A stretch of DNA of 64,000 nt from Halocatena pleomorpha (GTDB lineage: Archaea; Halobacteriota; Halobacteria; Halobacteriales; Haloarculaceae): positions 62,001 to 126,000 of the forward strand of contig NZ_RRCH01000014.1 in the NCBI RefSeq assembly GCF_003862495.1, read 5' to 3'. Positions 7,149 to 52,133 of the stretch are shown here, piece by piece. Position numbers and translations under genes: made by a program. A model generated the notes under the pieces. That model did not search any database. It worked only from the letters and a program-made list of their open reading frames with translations, and was not told the DNA's origin. How positions within the stretch are numbered: the stretch's first letter is position 1; the number at the start of each line of letters is the position of its first letter.

Positions 7149-7883
7149 ATGAAGAAGGTCCTCGCTAGCATTGGTATCGGTAACGCCACCGTAGACACTG
7201 TTCTTCCCAGAGACACCGTTCGACCCGGAGAAACGGTCGAAGCGGACGTACACATCACTGGTGGAAACGCAGAACAGGATGTCGGGACGATTCGTTTCGA
7301 ACTGGAAACCCGTTACCGGACTGATGAGGGGTATCGAACGGTAGACATCGATCGGTTCACGCTCGCTGAAAGCCTCACGATCCGACCGGACCAGGAGGAA
7401 ACCCGGTCGGTCTCAATCGACGTCCCGTATTCGACCCCGGTTACACTCGGTGGTGTCGACGTGTGGATCGAAACGGAACTCGACATCGATTTCGCTGTCG
7501 ATCCGGAAGACAGGGATCATCTCGATGTCCGACCGACCCCTCGGCTCCAAACTGTCTTTGATGTGATAGATGATCTCGGATTTTCGCTCCACACGGCGGA
7601 CTGTGAAGCTGATCCGTACGGACACTACACTGATCACCGGTTTGTTCAGGAATTCGAGTTTCGAGCTACTGCTGGTCGGTTCCGCGACAGGCTCGACGAA
7701 CTCGAGATCATCGCTCAGCCCGGTCCACAGAAACTCGAACTGTTCGTTGAAATCGACCGTCGCGCCGGTCTGCTGAGTGAAATGGCTGACATCGATGAGC
7801 AAACCGAGCGAATGACGGTTCGTTCAACCGACGCTGCGGCGATCCGCGCCGATATCACTGCACTCATCGAGAAACACGCCTGA
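7149..7883 (+). CDS. Spo0M (SpoOM) family arrestin-like protein
   Basis: The 244-aa protein matches the Spo0M family, named for a Bacillus subtilis sporulation-control protein with an arrestin-like beta-sandwich fold. Visible signatures are the opening MKKVLASIGIGNATVDT, the VRPGETVEADVHITGGNAEQ strand pair, the paired strands with R/Y-rich edges, and the later GG-x-DVWIETELDIDFAVDPEDRD block. The C-terminal half carries SEMADIDE and a helical end. The family is common in haloarchaea, where no sporulation exists, so the role is unknown and possibly related to stress or cell-surface state. It stands alone, with ATG 7149. Confidence 0.88.
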   Translation: MKKVLASIGIGNATVDTVLPRDTVRPGETVEADVHITGGNAEQDVGTIRFELETRYRTDEGYRTVDIDRFTLAESLTIRPDQEETRSVSIDVPYSTPVTLGGVDVWIETELDIDFAVDPEDRDHLDVRPTPRLQTVFDVIDDLGFSLHTADCEADPYGHYTDHRFVQEFEFRATAGRFRDRLDELEIIAQPGPQKLELFVEIDRRAGLLSEMADIDEQTERMTVRSTDAAAIRADITALIEKHA

Positions 7884-11859: not shown

Positions 11860-12309
11860 TTACCGGTCGGGATCGGCTCCGTTTTTCTGTGGCTCGATGC
11901 CTCGGTTTTCGATCAGACGAACAGCGATGTCCCCCGGATGTATCCGTTCTAACGCCAGTTCGATAAACGCTTGGTCGATCTCGTATCGTTTGTCGTTCCG
12001 TACATTATAGTTGTGTTTGAGCTGTCCTTTGGCATCATGCATTAGATCTTCGTATCCATACACCTCCGATTGCTGTAAGAACATCGCGAACTGCTCCCGC
12101 TCCCAAGACAGCGGACGGCTGTCTGCGATCGTCTCGGACTCGTCTCGTGAGTCATTCTGTTCTACATCCACGGTTTGAGACGTGTCCATCGGACCGTCCG
12201 GTGATACGGAGGCATCCTTAGATTTATTCGATCGACCTTTCGGTGCTTTTGGCTGGTGTCCTGCGCTCGTCTCACCGTCTTCGTCTACGAATTCATCGAA
12301 GTCACTCAT
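11860..12309 (-). CDS. Small partner protein encoded with ParA (candidate centromere-binding protein)
   Basis: Protein of 149 aa that I do not recognise by family. Residues 1-75 are acidic, Ser/Asp-rich and likely disordered; residues about 76-140 look helical and include SWEREQFAMFLQQSEVYGYE and KRYEIDQAFIELALERI. Its ATG at 12309 overlaps the ParA stop by the 8-nt ATGAGTGA, so the two are translationally coupled. By analogy with archaeal and bacterial partition cassettes, where an ATPase gene is followed by a DNA-binding adaptor, it is a candidate ParB-like or adaptor protein for the repeat region at 13.36-13.85 kb. That role is inference from position only; no classical ParB/HTH motif is seen. 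Confidence 0.6.
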   Translation of the reverse strand: MSDFDEFVDEDGETSAGHQPKAPKGRSNKSKDASVSPDGPMDTSQTVDVEQNDSRDESETIADSRPLSWEREQFAMFLQQSEVYGYEDLMHDAKGQLKHNYNVRNDKRYEIDQAFIELALERIHPGDIAVRLIENRGIEPQKNGADPDR

Positions 12310-13231
12310 CGAGAACACCCTCGCGCTCAACAATGCGAGCTAGTTCGTCTAAGTGCTGAAGCGTTAGTTGATCGTTGTTGCTTGTCGAACGTTTCGTTTT
12401 GATGTACCTCCCGAATGGCATCTGCTTTTCTTCTAATGCGTTTTCGAGATTCGAGTTTTTTCGTAATCCTGGCTTTGGAACCTCAATATCACCCCTATCG
12501 ATCGCCTCCCATTCCTCTGCTGGAATTCGTGCGAATGAGGGGAGATATTTTGAAAACTTGTCTGACCGGTTCAGACTCTCAAGGAGTCGTCGATCGGCTT
12601 TATCGTGTTTGATATACTCACTTATCATGTTCGGAACGATTGCGAGTATTTGGAAGTTGAGTTCGTCTGGCATCTCATTGATCACGCGTTTGTACGTTCG
12701 TTTGAACCCCGATCGATTCATGTCTCCCGGAGGGATGGGTATGATTGTCCTCGCAGCTGCCCCGTATGCAGCCCTAGCAATGTGGCTCCACTCACCGCCG
12801 CCATCCATGATGATGTAGTCGTAAGTGCCCTCTTCGAGCAGTGGCTGGATGAAGTTCTTCTTGAGAAGTGTAATACTGTTATCGCTAAGCTCGCTTTCGA
12901 GGGTGCTGAGCTTGACTGAGGCAGGAACGAAATCCCACTCCCAGTCTGTGGGATAGATATACTCTTCAAATCCTCCGTATTCGTGAATAACGATGTTCGT
13001 GAGATCATGCGTCGGATCTCCGAAAACGTCTGCGTATCCAAGGCTCTCAGTTATATGGCCGTTCGGATCAAGGTCCATGAAGAGGACGTCGTGCTCCCGG
13101 ACGGATAATCGATCTACGATATTGAGTGCCAGCAGCGATTTCCCGACGCCTCCTTTTAGCATGTTTACGCTGACTGCCTGACCAGTGATCGGTTCAATCT
13201 CTCCTTTGACTTCGTACGGTTTTGATGTCAT
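12302..13231 (-). CDS. ParA/Soj-family partition ATPase
   Basis: P-loop ATPase of the ParA/MinD superfamily, 309 aa, that normally drives segregation of plasmids or secondary chromosomes on nucleoid DNA. The deviant Walker A is MLKGGVGKSLLALN (about 24-37), followed by the A-prime motif LFMDLDPNGHITESLGY and Walker B YDYIIMDGGGEWS. The protein has no N-terminal HTH, so it belongs to the small, Soj-like type. A perfect palindrome 14 nt before the start (13245-13259) could mediate autoregulation, and the repeat-rich 13.36-13.85 kb region lies just upstream. It heads a two-gene operon with the small partner protein. Confidence 0.9.
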   Translation of the reverse strand: MTSKPYEVKGEIEPITGQAVSVNMLKGGVGKSLLALNIVDRLSVREHDVLFMDLDPNGHITESLGYADVFGDPTHDLTNIVIHEYGGFEEYIYPTDWEWDFVPASVKLSTLESELSDNSITLLKKNFIQPLLEEGTYDYIIMDGGGEWSHIARAAYGAAARTIIPIPPGDMNRSGFKRTYKRVINEMPDELNFQILAIVPNMISEYIKHDKADRRLLESLNRSDKFSKYLPSFARIPAEEWEAIDRGDIEVPKPGLRKNSNLENALEEKQMPFGRYIKTKRSTSNNDQLTLQHLDELARIVEREGVLDE

Positions 13232-14038: not shown

Positions 14039-14638
14039 ATGCGACACACATCGTATGTTAGTCCGACCCGACGAGACGTTCTCAAGCGCATTGGAGCAAT
14101 TGGCGGGGCTGGTCTCAGTGGAGTGACGCTAGCGAGCGGCACCGCTGTGGCGAAGCCGACCGTCGACTGGGAGCCAGCCGATTCGAGCAACTTTACCGGC
14201 GGAAACAGAGGGGCAGACGACATCAACTGGATCATCGTCCACGTGGTTCAGGGTTTAGCCAGTAGCGCGGTTAACTGGTTCCAGAACCCTGACGCAAACG
14301 TCAGTGCTCACTACACTGTCGCCAAGAATGGTCATCGCTATCAAAGCGTTAGCGATATGAACATAGCATGGCACGCGGGGAATTGGGATTACAACCAGCA
14401 GTCGATCGGCATTGAACACGGAGGGTATGTCAGTGAGAGCTTCACAGCCGATCAGTATCAAAGTTCTGCTGCACTGACCAGTTGGCTCTGTGAGCAGTAC
14501 AACGTTCCGAAGCAACATCCAGCGGATCCAGCCACTGCTGGTGTTATCGGTCATGCACAAGTGCCCGGTAGTACCCATACTGATCCCGGGGCCAATTGGA
14601 ACTGGGGACACTACATGGATCTCGTTAGGTCTAGGTAA
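14039..14638 (+). CDS. Exported N-acetylmuramoyl-L-alanine amidase (Amidase_2 family)
   Basis: Zinc amidase that in bacteria and phages cuts the bond between muramic acid and the stem peptide of peptidoglycan. A Tat signal (SPTRRDVLKRIGAIGGAG, residues 8-25) is followed by an Amidase_2/AmpD-like domain of about 150 aa. Zinc ligands can be placed at H68 (WIIVHVVQG), H172 (GHAQVPG) and D182 (HTDPG), and the catalytic acid at E126 (SIGIEHGG). Archaea have no peptidoglycan, so the substrate must be foreign: lysis of competing bacteria or nutrient scavenging is inferred. TTAATATA near 14009 precedes ATG 14039 by about 25-30 nt. The next gene encodes a GH73 glucosaminidase, cutting the glycan strand instead. 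It directly abuts the parA repeat region. Confidence 0.9.
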   Translation: MRHTSYVSPTRRDVLKRIGAIGGAGLSGVTLASGTAVAKPTVDWEPADSSNFTGGNRGADDINWIIVHVVQGLASSAVNWFQNPDANVSAHYTVAKNGHRYQSVSDMNIAWHAGNWDYNQQSIGIEHGGYVSESFTADQYQSSAALTSWLCEQYNVPKQHPADPATAGVIGHAQVPGSTHTDPGANWNWGHYMDLVRSR

Positions 14639-14719
14639 CGATACGATCTTGCGGGCAGATACGCGTATGATAAAAAATTGGACTGGACGCAAGCGTGTGA
14701 GAATGGAACTCAAGTGTTC

Positions 14720-15283
14720 ATGACTAGTAATCTTACCCGACGGTCGGTGCTGAAAGCACTGGGCAGTACGAGTATTCTTATGGCTGGTAGCGTATCGTTT
14801 TCGTCTCGTCCCGCTGCTGCGTACACCATTGATAGCGATCTCAGGCGACCCGCTGATGTCACCGGAAGGCAGCTCAATGCGGCGGTTGGCGCGATGTCAC
14901 CGGGAAGTCCGTTGGTCGGTCTCGGAGACCCGTGGGTCGACGTCCAGGCCACCCGGAATATCAATGCGGTGTATATGGCTGCCCATGCAGCACTCGAATC
15001 AGCGTGGGGACGGAGCGATATTGCACAAGAGAAAAACAACATCTACGGATTTGACGCACGAGACATCTGTCCAGCTGAGTGCGCTGATGAGTACGACTCG
15101 TTCGAACAGTGTGTCCGGGAGGTGATGGAATACATCGATCGAGAGTATCTCACACCAGGAGGGACCTACTACGAAGGAGCCACGTTGCGCGGCATGAATG
15201 TCCACTACGCGACTGATCCACAGTGGGCAGAAAAGATCGCTGGCATCATGGACGATCTCGAAACCAACCTTCCGGACGGATAG
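14720..15283 (+). CDS. Exported GH73-like glucosaminidase (peptidoglycan hydrolase)
   Basis: Predicted endo-beta-N-acetylglucosaminidase of the FlgJ/LytG/Bax group, which hydrolyses the sugar backbone of peptidoglycan. From ATG 14720 a Tat signal (TRRSVLKALGSTSILMAG) is followed by the lysozyme-like domain with the catalytic Glu in AAHAALESAWGRSDIAQ (E93), then KNNIYGFDARD, a segment with a Cys pair (DICPAEC, residues 116-121), SFEQCVREVMEYI and TLRGMNVHYATDPQWAEKI, all typical of the family. Length is 187 aa. An in-frame start at 14678 would put 14 extra residues before the signal and is less likely. It lies 81 nt after the amidase on the same strand; the two would act together on one polymer. 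Function against bacteria is inferred. Confidence 0.87.
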   Translation: MTSNLTRRSVLKALGSTSILMAGSVSFSSRPAAAYTIDSDLRRPADVTGRQLNAAVGAMSPGSPLVGLGDPWVDVQATRNINAVYMAAHAALESAWGRSDIAQEKNNIYGFDARDICPAECADEYDSFEQCVREVMEYIDREYLTPGGTYYEGATLRGMNVHYATDPQWAEKIAGIMDDLETNLPDG

Positions 15284-47269: not shown

Positions 47270-49031
47270 CAGCGGTTAGCAACCCGAAAGGAAGGGCGTT
47301 CTCAGCGACACGAGAAAGCGCGTCTCAGCCCATCACCGCCTGCTGCGCTAGACGCCGACAGCAACAGCACGTCGGATCAGTGTATCGGTGGCACGGGCAT
47401 GATCACCACTAAATCGAATCTGGGACAGTATTGTGTTAGCATGTAGTTAGCAAATGAGGAGCCATTCGACAGCAATGCGTCTCCGATAACGCGCTCACCT
47501 CGTGCTCACCCCCCGACGGTGTAGCGGAGCCGTGTCGTACTACTCGGTAGCCTGCCGCTCGCTATCAGACAGCTGGGGGAGGAATTCTGCGGTCCCGGCA
47601 GAAAAATAGATCACTCGGGAGCTGCGTGAACCAGTTCAAACTCAAAAAATAATGCTAATACATAATGCGACACAATCACTCATATAGTATTTTTGATTGA
47701 TTATAAACTATCAAGGATAGAATATCTACAGTAATTAGTATTAGCAGAAAGATAAGATCAGGAGTGTGCGTCTATACGAAGCAATTATGATTTGATCTAG
47801 ATATACAAGGTGTAATACCGGTGTCTAGTTTGAATCGTGAGGTTAATTGTTCCCTGATCAGTACCATAGAACAGCTACCACATAACAACATAACCACATA
47901 CCTATGCAGCTGCCTGTTTAGTTTGAAGAAACCTTCATTACTGATATTCGTCAAGTAGTTCCGATATGTGCTCCTTCGAGAGATTGATGCAGACGACAGT
48001 ACGGGCTACGATTCTCTCTGCGATATCGCGGACTCGTTCAAGAAGCACTGAGACAACGCACCGACCTCGACGGAGACAGCGGGTGTACACTGTGGCTTGG
48101 TAACAGCAAATCCATCATTCTCATCAATGCGGACCAGACCAGTGACGACAGAGAAGAATTACACCCGTACGAGTGTAATGGAAACGATCGGATCCGCTCA
48201 ATCAGTGCTACCCGGCTTTCAGGCCGATGGCGGTCATCATATCGACACAACACCAAAAATTTGCTTCGAAACACACGGAGTAGTCTTCTACGCCGTTCAC
48301 AACACGTTTGTACCGAACAGCCATCACCTTTCGATAGGGTGAATCCTGTTCCGCGAAGCGTTTCCTGCTGGCAGCGCATCTCTAAGTAGTACAGCGGGTC
48401 GCTTGAACGACGGCCGATGATCGTGGTTTGAACACCGTTCTTTCTCGGTTGCTATCGATCATTCTGTGGTGGAGAACACTTTCTCCCCGAGATCGCACCG
48501 CAACTGGCACGTCCGTTGGAAATATCGTGATAAATGCGCGAATACACCCTAACCAATATAAATAATCTATTAGGAGTGTCGTGTTACAGTGCTGGAGTTC
48601 TATCGAGGACACACCCGTAGCCCTGCACTGAGTGGTGTTTGAATAGCGTCCCTCTGCCTTCGTTTGTTCTACACGTTAGAACACTACCGATAAAGCGATA
48701 TTTAACACGATATTTGATGTGATATGCTTGGATGATCTACCGTCAGAAAATACCTCTGCATAACTACCTGAAAACACACCGTTCATTCTCCAATAGGGAA
48801 CGGACGGTACAGGCGAGTAGATTGATTCTCTGCACAGCTCACGCGTCACCCCCGATAGCTGTCGCGTCCGAGATCAAGGCTGATCGAAGGGATGGGGACA
48901 ACACAGAGTAGCCGAGAAACAGCCCTGCTGATCAGCAATGCAATTAACAAAGATGTTGTGCGTAAAACATATAAATCCATAATATTTATTAGTTACCATG
49001 TCTATTGTTGGATTGGAGGGGATGTATATGC
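47270..49031. other. 1.76 kb region without a supported gene
   Basis: Contains three short open frames with no family resemblance (e.g. 48097-48342, 48382-48612), an A/T-rich run near 47640-47760, and further A/T-rich stretches at 48500-48700 and 48960-48995. It has no recognisable insertion sequence, tRNA or terminal repeats. Its position directly left of two GH11 genes unusual for archaea suggests a decayed or transferred flank. The GH11 promoter (AATATTTATT, about 48981-48990) is at its right end. Confidence 0.45.
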
Positions 49032-50054
49032 ATGCAAGACGATAGCAAACCACAATCATCTAGTGGAACAGAGAGACGAATAGCAACAAGCAAAATCGGC
49101 AGACGTGGCTACATGAAGGCAGTTTCGGCCGCCGTGGCGACTGGGTTCGGCGTCGGAGCCGTAACGAGCCCAGCCGCGGCTGCCATCACGGAGAACCAGA
49201 CCGGCAACGATGGCGGATACTTCTACTCGTTCTGGACCAACGACCAGGGGTCGGTCTCCATGACGTTGGGGAACGGGGGGAACTACAGCGTCGAATGGAA
49301 CGACACGGGGAACTTCGTCTGCGGTAAAGGCTGGGAAACCGGCGGCCGCAGAAACGTGACCTACTCCGGTTCGTTCAACCCGTCGGGCAACTCGTACCTG
49401 TGTCTGTACGGTTGGACGACGGACCCGCTAGTCGAGTACTACATCCTCGACAACTGGGGTAGCTACCGGCCTGAACACGACTACAAGGGCACCGTCACGA
49501 GCGACGGGGAGACGTACGACATTTACGAGTCGCTGCGGGAAAACGCCCCTTCCATCATAGGCGAGGCAACGTTCCCACAGTACTGGAGCATCCGACAGTC
49601 AAGGCGGACTGGCGGTACCATCACCGCCGGTAACCACTTCGATGCGTGGATCAGTAATGGCATGGACATGGGTAGCCACGACTACCAGATCCTCGCCACC
49701 GAGGGGTACCAGAGCAGTGGAAGCTCCAACATCACGGTCGGTGACTCCGGCGGCGGAGGCGGTGGCGGTGATGACGACAACGGAGGCGGTAGTCCCGGAA
49801 ACCTGATCGCGGAGATCGACCCCAGTACGACATCGGCGTCGATCGGTGAGCTGATCCAGTTCAATGTCAACAACACTGCCGACTCAGGCAACTGGATCAA
49901 TTCCCTTGAGTGGGACCTCGGCAACGGAACGACCGCGACCGGTTGGTACACGGACGAACGGTACCAGTCGGCAGGGACCTACACTGTCACACTCACTGCC
50001 ACCAACAACAACGGCGATACGACAACTGACTCGGTCGACATCACGATCTCGTAA
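49032..50054 (+). CDS. Exported GH11 endo-1,4-beta-xylanase with C-terminal PKD-like domain
   Basis: Secreted xylanase cutting the xylan main chain. Domains from ATG 49032: Tat signal ([20 protein letters not shown]), GH11 catalytic domain (about 50-240), a Gly/Asp-rich linker and a PKD-like domain (about 258-340, [25 protein letters not shown]). Catalytic residues follow GH11 enzymes: nucleophile in DPLVEYYI (E135) and acid/base in [12 protein letters not shown] (E224). A GGAGG at 49015-49019 lies 12 nt before the ATG. A second copy follows 144 nt downstream, with near-identical signal and catalytic blocks but another C-terminal module. GH11 is rare in archaea and common in bacteria and fungi, suggesting transfer. 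Confidence 0.94.
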
Positions 50055-50198
50055 GCCAGTGCGTAGACACCAGATTCATCCACTCTCGGCTTTGCCGGGT
50101 CTCTGTGGTAGCTCCGGTGACAGTATGGATGAGGGAATGCCGCCGACAAACACCTTGCAACGCTCACACAACAACGAAGCGATACGATTCACACAACC

Positions 50199-51455
50199 AT
50201 GACGAACGACAAACGCGATAACGAGGATACACCGAAGAAACGCAACGATCCCGCTGCGATGGCGGAGAACTTGACCGACGACGAGACAAACAACGATCAG
50301 TCGACTGAATACGATGAGGGGGTTTTGGATTCGATCGGACGTCGTGACTACATGAAGGCGGTTTCGGCCGCCGTGGCGACTGGGTTCGGCGTCGGAACCA
50401 TGACAGGATCGGCCGCAGCTGCCATCACGCAGAACCAGACCGGCAACGATGGCGGATACTTCTACTCGTTCTGGACCGACGCGCAAGGAACCGTCTCCAT
50501 GACATTGGGTAGCGGGGGGAACTACAGCACCGAATGGAGCGACACGGGGAACTTCGTCTGCGGCAAAGGCTGGGAGACCGGTGGCCGCAGGAACGTGGCT
50601 TACTCGGGTTCGTTTAATCCGTCCGGTAACGCCTACTTGTGTCTGTACGGTTGGACGACGGACCCGCTAGTCGAGTATTATATTATTGAGAACTGGGGTA
50701 GCTACCGACCCACTGGAAATTTCAAGGGTACCGTTAACAGTGATGGCGGCACGTACGATATCTATCAGACGGAGCGCGTCAATAAGCCCTCCATCATAGG
50801 CGAGGCAACCTTCCCACAGTACTGGAGCGTCCGGCAGTCGAGGCGGACAGGTGGTACCATCACCACCGGTAATCACTTCGACGCCTGGGCCAGTAACGGC
50901 ATGGACATGGGCAACCACGACTACCAGATCCTCGCCACCGAGGGGTACCAGAGCAGTGGAAGCTCCAACGTCACGGTCGGTGACTCCGGCGGTGGCGGCG
51001 GAGGCGGTGGTGGTGGCGGTGGCGGTTCCGTCCCGAACGGTACCTACCGCATTACCAACGTCAACAGCGGGAAAGTGCTCGACGTGGCGAATTCGTCCAC
51101 TCAGGACGGTGCCAATGTCCAGCAGTACTCCTACGGTGGCGGTTCGAACCAGCAGTGGAACGTCGAAAGCACTGGGAGCGGCTACCGCATCGCTAACGTT
51201 AACAGCGGGAAAGTGCTCGACGTGGCGAACTCGTCGACTGGGGACGGTGCCAACGTCCAGCAGTACTCGGACGGCGGCGGCAACAACCAGCGCTTCGAAC
51301 TCCACGACCAAGGCGGCGGCGAGTACCACATCCAGCCGGTCCACAGCGACAAGGCCGTCGACGTGGCGAATTCGTCGACTTCAGACGGGTCAAACGTTCA
51401 ACAGTGGTCCTGGGACAGCAACAGCGATCAGCTCTGGACGTTCGACTCGGTTTGA
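50199..51455 (+). CDS. Exported GH11 endo-1,4-beta-xylanase with ricin-type (CBM13) lectin domain
   Basis: Tandem paralogue of the preceding xylanase, 418 aa. It has a hydrophilic N-terminal extension of about 45 residues before the Tat signal ([20 protein letters not shown]), a GH11 domain with nucleophile DPLVEYYI (E159) and acid/base [12 protein letters not shown] (E248), a pure glycine linker of about 12 residues, then a beta-trefoil with QQW, QRF and QLW repeats (about 285-418). The lectin should dock the enzyme on polysaccharide. It resembles the trefoil on the GH43 at 5.0-6.6 kb. Shared identical DNA blocks with the first copy suggest recent duplication or gene conversion; the C-termini were swapped. 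Confidence 0.94.
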
Positions 51456-52133
51456 CCGCTACCGGCGACAGGGGACGCTCCGAAGGATGAGCCGTAGGAA
51501 GTCGAGTGACCGCCACTAAGTGCCGGCAGACACACCAACGGACCAGTCCGACACAGTTACGTCGGCTACCGTCGAGGCGGTCAGCAGCCCTTCGTAGCAC
51601 GCTTGGAAATTGCTACTAGCGGAAGAGACCCACTCTGCATTATGAAACGCTAGTTACTAAGCCTCGGTCATATCGAACTCCGTTACTGCTGCTTGCTGGA
51701 GAGCAAAGGAGTCGCTTGAAATGAAAAACCTACGATAATACTCATACCGATCACCAAATATATATGTGATAGTAATAACTGCCAATTCGACACTATTCAT
51801 ATACGCTGTAATACACACTGTGTTTCCCATCAAGTGATACACGAGCAATGAGAAGAATAGTAAAGAATACAAATACACACCTCTGAAAACCAATACATTA
51901 TTCAGATACATGATAAGATAGATAGAAGAGAATTATACCACAATAGACACCAACGAGAGTTGTAGTGTCTATTCAGAATTGTTGTAAAATTTAAAGATAT
52001 AATAAAAATTTATTATAAAATATTACTTAAGAAGTAATAATAAGACGCCAGACAGAGCATAGTTCAGCTTTGATAACATTTGTACATTCTAGAAGCTATC
52101 TTTAATAATCTCGTGGGAGAAGTGTATAAATAG
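51456..52133. other. A/T-rich intergenic region
   Basis: The region from about 51700 to 52070 is strongly A/T-rich. A hydrophobic minus-strand frame at 51657-51911 looks like a by-product of A/T content. The catalase promoter lies at 52101-52108. Confidence 0.4.
52101..52108 (+). promoter_or_regulatory. TATA-like box of the catalase gene
   Basis: TTTAATAA about 29 nt upstream of ATG 52134; a second box-like GTATAAATAG adjoins the start itself. Confidence 0.5.

What the first reader, a model, noticed from the sequence alone, without database searches (positions are those of the whole stretch)
49032..51455. Tandem GH11 xylanases with swapped C-terminal modules
The signal and catalytic domains share long near-identical blocks while the C-terminal module is PKD-like in one and a ricin-type lectin in the other. 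Identical DNA stretches (for example around the PLVEYY motif) suggest recent duplication or gene conversion followed by domain replacement. GH11 is scarce in archaea, so horizontal acquisition is likely. The gene-free 1.76 kb on the left may mark the insertion edge.
Basis: partly seen in the sequence, partly recalled or inferred. Interest (0 to 1): 0.6.

Follow-up and report, generated by a model that had tools for sequence, protein, structure and literature searches.

The report
Twin xylanases homogenised by gene conversion
Two neighbouring xylan-cutting enzyme genes in a salt-loving archaeon are old duplicates whose shared catalytic part seems to be copied repeatedly from one gene to the other, except for a short stretch that shapes the substrate cleft; the family came from actinobacteria long ago, so this is a neat new case of a known evolutionary process.

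Summary
Window 49032-50054 and 50199-51455 are tandem Tat-signal GH11 xylanases, one ending in PKD, the other in a RicinB (CBM13-type) lectin domain. The duplication is not recent: two congeners carry the pair, and all 12 haloarchaeal GH11 clusters in hand mix RicinB with non-RicinB enzymes. Gene conversion is well supported. Outside one stretch the neighbours differ at fewer silent sites (pS 0.30) than the orthologues of congener YIM A00010 do (0.35, 0.40). In a 31-codon island (49458-49550 / 50697-50789) the neighbours are near saturation (0.81), the orthologues not (0.37, 0.39). The island recurs in YIM A00010 and, weakly, in G360; trees of island and right flank conflict. By motif it is the cord and thumb of the GH11 cleft. 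The 44 haloarchaeal GH11s form one clade nested in Actinomycetota: one old transfer, not a recent arrival here. GH11 is not scarcer in sampled Halobacteria (20 of 391 genomes) than in the phyla of a Bacillota and an actinobacterial hit (13 of 398, 8 of 396). The pair sits in different places in three congeners; the left gap is unexplained. Closest precedent: mtrA-1/mtrA-2 of methanogens.

The parts
49032..50054 (+). gene 1 (w1): Tat-signal GH11 xylanase with C-terminal PKD domain, 340 aa
   Evidence: Tat motif RRGYMK at residues 24-29
49212..49736 (+). GH11 catalytic domain of gene 1; predicted nucleophile E135 and acid/base E224
   Evidence: residues 61-235; motif match (PROSITE-like patterns and catalytic roles recalled)
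49830..50048 (+). PKD domain of gene 1
   Evidence: PF18911 E 9.4e-13, residues 267-339
50199..51455 (+). gene 2 (w2): Tat-signal GH11 xylanase with C-terminal RicinB lectin domain, 418 aa
   Evidence: Tat motif RRDYMK at residues 48-53
50451..50975 (+). GH11 catalytic domain of gene 2; predicted nucleophile E159 and acid/base E248
   Evidence: residues 85-259
51030..51449 (+). RicinB (CBM13-type) lectin domain of gene 2 (union of the best stretches, residues 278-417)
   Evidence: PF14200 E 5.1e-37, PF00652 E 2.7e-19
49458..49550 (+). conversion-resistant island in gene 1 (residues 143-173; by motif cord, following strands and thumb up to the Pro of PSI)
   Evidence: coordinates; pS 0.81 inside, 0.30 outside; Fisher p 0.0001; AU test
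50697..50789 (+). the same island in gene 2 (residues 167-197)
49122..49157 (+). 36-bp run identical to 50361-50396 (signal peptide)
49192..49238 (+). 47-bp run identical to 50431-50477 (start of the catalytic domain)
49399..49438 (+).
49676..49730 (+). 55-bp run identical to 50915-50969 (acid/base stretch)
48975..51551 (+). block shared with congener YIM A00010 (84.2% identity over 2628 alignment columns)
47270..49031 (.). gene-free stretch left of the pair; 47270-49000 has no DNA match in the six other genomes of the genus searched

Best explanation
An old tandem pair of secreted GH11 endo-xylanases in a haloarchaeon. The family entered haloarchaea once, from an actinobacterial source. The pair was formed before the congeneric species split and has since been kept alike by recurrent non-reciprocal copying (gene conversion) between the two neighbours, from the signal peptide to the glycine-rich linker. 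Copying has not erased a 31-codon island that encodes, by motif, the cord and thumb around the substrate cleft, nor the different C-terminal modules. Inferred function: both enzymes cut xylan outside the cell with the same catalytic scaffold but with differently shaped clefts and different anchoring (ricin/CBM13-type lectin against PKD). Shown here: the pair, its orthologues, the excess likeness at silent sites within genomes, the island, the phylogeny. Inferred: enzyme activity, substrate difference, and why the island persists (selection for two clefts, or local divergence that blocks recombination, or both).
For: w, y, g = window, YIM A00010, G360. Non-synonymous divergence is larger between neighbours (dN 0.087, 0.071, 0.071) than between orthologues (0.026 and 0.023 for w-y; 0.028-0.063 for the pairs with g), but silent divergence is not: neighbours dS 0.55, 0.31, 0.39, orthologues 0.48-0.83. 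At codons with one amino acid in all four genes, 'same within genome' beats the cross pattern 20:1 (w/y), 24:3 (w/g), 16:2 (y/g) (counting nucleotide sites, has 25 for w/g); sign tests p 2e-5, 5e-5, 0.001. A codon-usage null expects about 8-9 against 7, and none of 1500 runs reached the observed excess. Two controls lack it: ABC permease paralogues 3:2 with 23 orthologous patterns (G000/G360) and 1:3 with 16 (G000/G391); so does a GH11 pair in G050/G089, 0:1 with 32. Island: pS 0.81, 0.56, 0.51 inside against 0.30, 0.19, 0.26 outside; four orthologue comparisons (w-y, w-g) are not raised inside. Fisher p 0.0001, 0.002, 0.028; six orthologue comparisons p 0.26-0.82. Runs tests for clustering of the two patterns along the gene: p 0.039, 0.005, 0.039. 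Trees: the island rejects w1+w2 (AU p 4e-5); the right flank rejects w1+y1+g1 (0.0025) and w2+y2+g2 (0.003). Origin: 44 haloarchaeal GH11 domains form one clade (98/84) inside an actinobacterial ladder rooted on Bacillota-phylum rows. Efficient gene conversion between genome copies is shown for Haloferax volcanii (PMC8223754, abstract and passages seen).
Against: The island was delimited on the w pair and then tested in y and g; g gives only p 0.028 and its strongest dip lies elsewhere (columns 66-92), and a scan of y1-y2 alone gives p 0.15. In the tree of the joined flanks w1+w2 has moderate support (81/89), y1+y2 is not the best grouping (AU p 0.04), and the left flank alone does not decide; in the island tree the gene 1 copies are not resolved. 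Tests on the longest within-genome run were not significant (p 0.70, 0.65, 0.33), and runs tests with Halovivax were not either (0.24, 0.34, 0.23). The longest-run test for w1-w2 gave p 0.012 on all variable sites but 0.20 on third positions, and two orthologous comparisons (w1-g1, y2-g2) also have long runs (p below 0.002, all sites). w1-w2 dS over the whole domain (0.55) is not below w1-y1 (0.48). In Halovivax the island contrast is not significant (p 0.17). Only three species of the genus have the pair. No activity or substrate data.
Confidence: 0.8

Rival explanations
1. Recent duplication in this genome followed by replacement of one C-terminal module.
For: Long identical DNA runs between the genes and different C-terminal modules.
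Against: The pair in the same order exists in YIM A00010 and G360; each gene is closer in protein to its YIM A00010 orthologue (94.2 and 95.2%) than to its neighbour (85.7%); island silent sites are near saturation between the two genes; no close donor of either module in the genome.
Confidence: 0.04
2. No conversion: the silent-site likeness within each genome is shared codon bias, and the amino-acid differences are kept by selection.
For: GC3 of the pair is high (0.754 for both, against 0.559-0.734 in 14 other window genes), so codon choice is constrained.
Against: A null that draws codons from the pair's own usage gives within-genome to cross patterns of about 8.6:6.8, 7.9:6.9 and 8.9:6.7, not 20:1, 24:3 and 16:2 (for y/g the count 16 alone is reached in 1.5% of runs, the excess in none). 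ABC permease paralogues of the same genus show no excess. Codon bias would not spare one stretch.
Confidence: 0.06
3. Recombination between congeneric species (exchange of whole or part genes across species) rather than between the neighbours explains the mosaic.
For: Haloferax species hybrids exchange long DNA stretches (passages in PMC8223754). The G360 gene 2 thumb ([10 protein letters not shown]) resembles gene 1 types, and w1-g1 has 0 of 20 silent differences at columns 112-136 (p 0.002).
Against: Exchange between species makes orthologues alike across genomes; the excess here is likeness of neighbours within a genome, with few cross patterns (1, 3, 2). It may add to the mosaic, above all in G360.
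Confidence: 0.08

Closest known systems
mtrA-1/mtrA-2 tandem paralogues of methanogens (PMC4632066; abstract, start of introduction and outline seen)
   Same: Archaeal duplicates of old age; one copy has a different added domain; the shared domain is homogenised by lasting gene conversion.
   Different: Secreted xylanases of a haloarchaeon; here a short stretch inside the shared domain also escapes homogenisation; far shorter documented duration.
Halorhabdus GH11 xylanases with RicinB lectin domains or CBM6+PKD (PMC7720462; passages seen)
   Same: Same catalytic family and same kinds of C-terminal modules; clustered there with Thermobifida and other GH11.
   Different: Gene 1 here has PKD without CBM6; the passages I saw do not discuss tandem pairing or gene conversion.
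Tandem GH11 pairs of unnamed same-family genomes G050 and G089 (L117, L118)
   Same: Neighbouring GH11 genes, one with RicinB and one with CBM6+PKD.
   Different: Neighbours diverged and orthologous throughout; no sign of conversion (32 orthologous, 0 within-genome, 1 cross).
Talaromyces cellulolyticus XylC structure (PMC4177571; passages seen)
   Same: Cord and thumb of the right-hand fold; Glu119, Tyr129, Pro131, Arg155 and Pro159 correspond by motif and spacing to w1 E135, Y145, P147, R169 and P173 (two residues shorter between).
   Different: Fungal enzyme; the mapping was done by eye from motifs, no structural alignment was run.

Membership tests
GH11 endo-1,4-beta-xylanase | PF00457 domain above the curated cut-off | tested here: met
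   266.3 and 271 bits against cut-off 27
GH11 endo-1,4-beta-xylanase | both catalytic glutamates in their motifs | tested here: met
   [11 protein letters not shown] / [11 protein letters not shown] and [12 protein letters not shown] in the two genes (patterns recalled from PROSITE; of the 117 GH11 rows in hand 117 match the first and 99 the second)
GH11 endo-1,4-beta-xylanase | close sequence relatives with solved GH11 structures | tested here: met
   best match 7eo6 for both: E 7.4e-95 (gene 2) and 6.5e-90 (gene 1); no model of our own was built
GH11 endo-1,4-beta-xylanase | xylan hydrolysis | not testable with these tools
   no activity data
Concerted evolution by gene conversion | neighbours more alike within a genome than orthologues, at silent sites too | tested here: met
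   outside the island pS 0.30 (w) and 0.19 (y) against 0.35 and 0.40 for w-y orthologues; patterns 20:1, 24:3, 16:2. Over the whole domain w1-w2 dS 0.55 lies between w1-y1 0.48 and w2-y2 0.57
Concerted evolution by gene conversion | duplication older than the species split, shown by unconverted parts | tested here: met
   island and C-terminal modules of w and y follow orthology
Concerted evolution by gene conversion | conflicting trees along the gene | tested here: met
   AU tests of island and right flank; left flank alone inconclusive
Concerted evolution by gene conversion | observed conversion events in a living strain | not testable with these tools
   needs an experiment
Recent horizontal acquisition into this genome | nearest relatives outside haloarchaea | tested here: not met
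   nearest are congeners at 94-95%; best bacterial rows 78.6% (gene 1) and 80.2% (gene 2); inside the haloarchaeal clade
Recent horizontal acquisition into this genome | deviating composition | tested here: inconclusive
   GC 0.589 and 0.593 lie within the 0.554-0.596 of 14 other window genes; GC3 0.754 is slightly above their 0.559-0.734

The most novel reading that the evidence does not exclude
Selection keeps two versions of the cord and thumb alive against continual gene conversion, so one catalytic scaffold is maintained jointly by two genes while two substrate clefts and two anchoring modules are kept apart: a prokaryotic counterpart of vertebrate gene pairs in which only the functionally distinct stretch escapes homogenisation (comparison recalled).
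Probability: 0.4. Interest if true: 0.6.

Novelty: new member of a known kind. Interest (0 to 1): 0.42.

Why it matters
Lasting concerted evolution of protein genes is reported as rare in prokaryotes. The one survey I found lists seven archaeal genes, all from methanogens (PMC6053082, passages seen). A haloarchaeal enzyme pair would add a case from a group in which gene conversion has been measured by experiment. The spared stretch points to residues that may decide substrate use in GH11, and it can be tested directly by swapping 31 codons. It also warns that whole-gene trees of such pairs mislead.

Tried and rejected
Rejected: recent duplication. Rejected: recent import into this genome. Rejected as sole cause: codon bias (null, ABC control). 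GC-biased conversion considered: GC3 inside against outside the island is lower in w2 (0.61/0.77), y2 (0.77/0.85) and g2 (0.71/0.77) but not in w1 (0.81/0.81), y1 (0.87/0.85) or g1 (0.74/0.74); left open. A remnant gene in the left gap was sought: no Pfam match for its one ORF of 90 aa or more and no DNA match in the genus; other frames were printed but not searched. A donor for either C-terminal module in the same genome was sought: best other ricin domain 55% identical, best other PKD domain 58%. The quick tree had no outgroup and was superseded. No structure prediction was run; the cord and thumb assignment is by motif and a paper. From the 73 bacterial rows, 18 actinobacterial rows were kept, the other 55 (L040 among them) were dropped, and 22 new bacterial rows were added. 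The samples include their centre genomes, which were chosen because they have GH11.

Literature: four searches bear on novelty (10 of 10 papers listed, 8 of 8, 5 of 5, 12 of 40). None of the listed titles and abstract starts describes gene conversion between archaeal xylanase genes; only open-licence PMC papers are held. One further search (3 papers) listed only animal genes.

Full report
What is there. Window 49032-50054 (w1) and 50199-51455 (w2) encode two Tat-signal proteins with GH11 catalytic domains (E 1.4e-79 and 5.3e-81), followed by PKD in w1 and RicinB lectin in w2 (Tat motif). Both keep the two GH11 motifs with the catalytic glutamates (patterns recalled) and match solved GH11 xylanases. 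They are the only GH11 matches in the genome held. The window also holds two GH43 genes, a GH10 gene, a GH2 gene and a glucuronate isomerase gene, so a role in use of plant hemicellulose is the natural reading.

Same pair elsewhere. Halobacteriales archaeon YIM A00010 (L031; y1, y2) has the same order with PKD and RicinB. G360 (L115; g1, g2) has it with gene 1 ending after the catalytic domain. Halovivax sp. KZCA124 (L033; h1, h2) has it with CBM5/12 in gene 1. YIM A00010 lies in genome G396, whose GH11 matches have the same contig number, coordinates and E-values as those of G392, a genome of the window's genus; I therefore treat L031 as G392. In the genus 3 of 7 genomes have GH11, each two copies. 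In class Halobacteria 20 of 391 sampled genomes (the window's own among them), 12 of 86 genera, have GH11; the like samples gave 13 of 398 for the phylum of L040, a Bacillota MAG, and 8 of 396 for the phylum of L097, an actinobacterium, each counting its centre genome.

Modules. All 44 distinct haloarchaeal GH11 proteins in hand were scanned: 24 with RicinB, 12 with PKD (8 of these with CBM6), 5 with CBM5/12 (1 of these with CBM6), 1 with CBM6 alone, 2 with no added domain. Each of the 12 clusters (window, L031, L033, L037, L111, L112, L114, L115, L116, L117, L118, L119; two to four copies in the stretch fetched) holds at least one RicinB member and one non-RicinB member. The mixed set is thus a recurring haloarchaeal arrangement. 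Halorhabdus GH11 with RicinB or with CBM6 plus PKD is in print (PMC7720462, passages seen), and two GH11 proteins in Halorhabdus utahensis too (PMC3102087, passages seen).

Age against likeness. In protein w1 is 94.2% identical to y1 and w2 95.2% to y2, but w1 and w2 are only 85.7% identical. Non-synonymous divergence agrees: 0.087 between w1 and w2 (0.071 in y, 0.071 in g), against 0.026 and 0.023 for the w-y orthologues; orthologues with g lie at 0.028-0.063. Silent divergence does not: w1-w2 0.55, y1-y2 0.31, g1-g2 0.39, against 0.48 (w1-y1), 0.57 (w2-y2), 0.65 (y1-g1), 0.50 (y2-g2), 0.83 (w1-g1) and 0.81 (w2-g2). At codons that give one amino acid in all four genes, shared-within-genome patterns outnumber cross patterns 20:1, 24:3 and 16:2 for w/y, w/g and y/g, with 7, 6 and 5 orthologous patterns. 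A null from the pairs' own codon usage expects about 8.6:6.8, 7.9:6.9 and 8.9:6.7, and no run of 1500 reached the observed excess. ABC permease paralogues gave 3:2 with 23 orthologous patterns (G000/G360) and 1:3 with 16 (G000/G391) (orthology there taken from similarity). Eight quartets of clustered GH11 copies were counted, some built from copies that are not one-to-one orthologues: G050/G089 0:1 with 32 orthologous patterns, G079/G050 3:7, two quartets of G138/G282 7:3 and 3:2 (13 and 21 orthologous), L037/L119 6:2, L114 with L019/L113 10:6, window/Halovivax 18:1, Halovivax with L006/L004 4:0. The excess is strong in this genus, suggested in some others and absent in G050/G089.

The island. 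Third-position identity of w1 and w2 drops to 0.37-0.47 in the windows that start at columns 111-131, while the six orthologue comparisons lie at 0.47-0.93 without a common dip there. A scan over same-amino-acid codons finds 13 of 20 changed at columns 121-151 (p 0.004). The strongest dip of y1-y2 is at the same place (9 of 20, p 0.15 as a scan); that of g1-g2 lies at columns 66-92 (12 of 20, p 0.006). With the island fixed from w, same-amino-acid codons differ 13 of 20 inside against 27 of 132 outside (w, p 0.0001), 9 of 21 against 17 of 135 (y, p 0.002), 9 of 23 against 24 of 134 (g, p 0.028), 7 of 26 against 19 of 123 (Halovivax, p 0.17); six orthologue comparisons give p 0.26-0.82. pS inside/outside: w 0.81/0.30, y 0.56/0.19, g 0.51/0.26; w-y orthologues 0.37/0.35 and 0.39/0.40; w-g orthologues 0.36/0.53 and 0.52/0.49. 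DNA trees of the w, y, g and Halovivax copies: the island rejects w1+w2 (AU p 4e-5), y1+y2 (1e-5) and, barely, g1+g2 (0.047), and puts w2 with y2 (100/99) and g2 next to them (90/98), while the gene 1 copies are unresolved. The joined flanks put w1 with w2 (81/89) and g1 with g2 (99/98) and reject w1+y1+g1 (0.02; w2+y2+g2 0.056); y1+y2 is not the best grouping there (0.04). The right flank alone rejects w1+y1+g1 (0.0025) and w2+y2+g2 (0.003); the left flank alone does not decide. Tests that did not support conversion: longest within-genome run among informative third positions (p 0.70, 0.65, 0.33), and longest run of third-position identity of w1-w2 (p 0.20; 0.012 with all sites).

What the island is. 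It covers w1 residues 143-173 and w2 167-197. By motif it matches Talaromyces XylC from just before Tyr129 to Pro159, that is the cord (131-143), the next strands and the thumb, with substrate contacts Tyr129, Arg155 and Pro159 (PMC4177571, passages seen; the mapping is mine). The differences are clustered in the cord (EHDY against TGNF) and the thumb (ESLRENAP against QTERVNKP). I infer that the two enzymes have differently shaped clefts. Whether selection or mere divergence shields the island cannot be told here; neighbour pN in the island is high (0.25 in w) and orthologue pN there (w-y 0.042 and 0.055) is above that outside (0.023 and 0.016), so it also evolves faster.

Origin. In a careful tree of 84 catalytic domains rooted on 15 rows from the phylum of L040, all 44 haloarchaeal rows form one clade (98/84, starred) nested in a ladder of Actinomycetota; nearest are Nocardiopsidaceae, including Streptomonospora. 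This fits one old transfer from actinobacteria. Fungal and other bacterial GH11 were not in the tree. The order inside the haloarchaeal clade is comb-like and should not be trusted, as conversion mixes histories. GC of the genes is ordinary for the window.

Place in the genome. The block shared with YIM A00010 runs 48975-51551 only. In YIM A00010 the pair lies beside genes for a solute-binding protein (SBP_bac_5) and an oligopeptide-type ABC transporter, with a GH10 gene at their other end; in G360 it lies beyond GH10 and GH4 genes at the far end of the homologous set. In the window's genome the transporter genes are present near C6:249-257 kb (solute-binding protein at 252567-254372) without the pair, which sits about 140 kb away between an ABC exporter (ABC_tran, ABC2_membrane_2) and a catalase gene; in G360 the orthologues of these two flanks lie on two other contigs. 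So the pair has moved as a unit at least once in the genus; direction and mechanism are unknown.

Novelty. GH11 in haloarchaea, its modules and gene conversion in haloarchaea are all in print. As far as my searches of open-licence PMC papers show, the pair is a new example of concerted evolution of a tandem archaeal pair; mtrA-1/mtrA-2 is the closest precedent (PMC4632066, abstract and outline seen). A survey of prokaryotes lists seven archaeal genes with lasting concerted evolution, all from methanogens (PMC6053082, passages seen).

Noticed in passing
window 14039-14638 (+) and 14678-15283 (+): Adjacent genes for an N-acetylmuramoyl-L-alanine amidase (Amidase_2, E 1.4e-31) and a glucosaminidase-domain protein (PF01832, E 5.4e-20): peptidoglycan-cutting types in an archaeon, perhaps aimed at bacteria.
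   Followed up: partly
window 7149-7883 (+): Spo0M-family protein (E 1.5e-68). The same-genus strain YIM A00010 is reported to show morphological differentiation in a paper on hypha- and spore-forming haloarchaea (PMC10067837, passages seen).
   Followed up: partly
window 12302-13231 (-) and 11860-12333 (-): ParA-type ATPase (AAA_31, E 3.1e-18) with a small overlapping gene without Pfam match, as in replicon or plasmid partition.
   Followed up: no
window 50055-50198: The spacer between the two genes is partly alike in w, y and g by eye and holds a short GC-rich inverted repeat (printed; not tested).
   Followed up: no
L115 5007-5765 (G360): Gene 1 of this congener has no linker or PKD; it ends right after the catalytic domain.
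   Followed up: partly
L180 (G000:C6:239001-258095): The SBP_bac_5/ABC transporter genes that neighbour the GH11 pair in two congeners are kept in the window's genome without the pair; the GH10 gene at their other end in the congeners gave no DNA match here.
   Followed up: partly
window 47270-49031: Gene-free AT-rich stretch; 47270-49000 has no DNA match in the six other genomes of the genus; origin unknown.
   Followed up: partly
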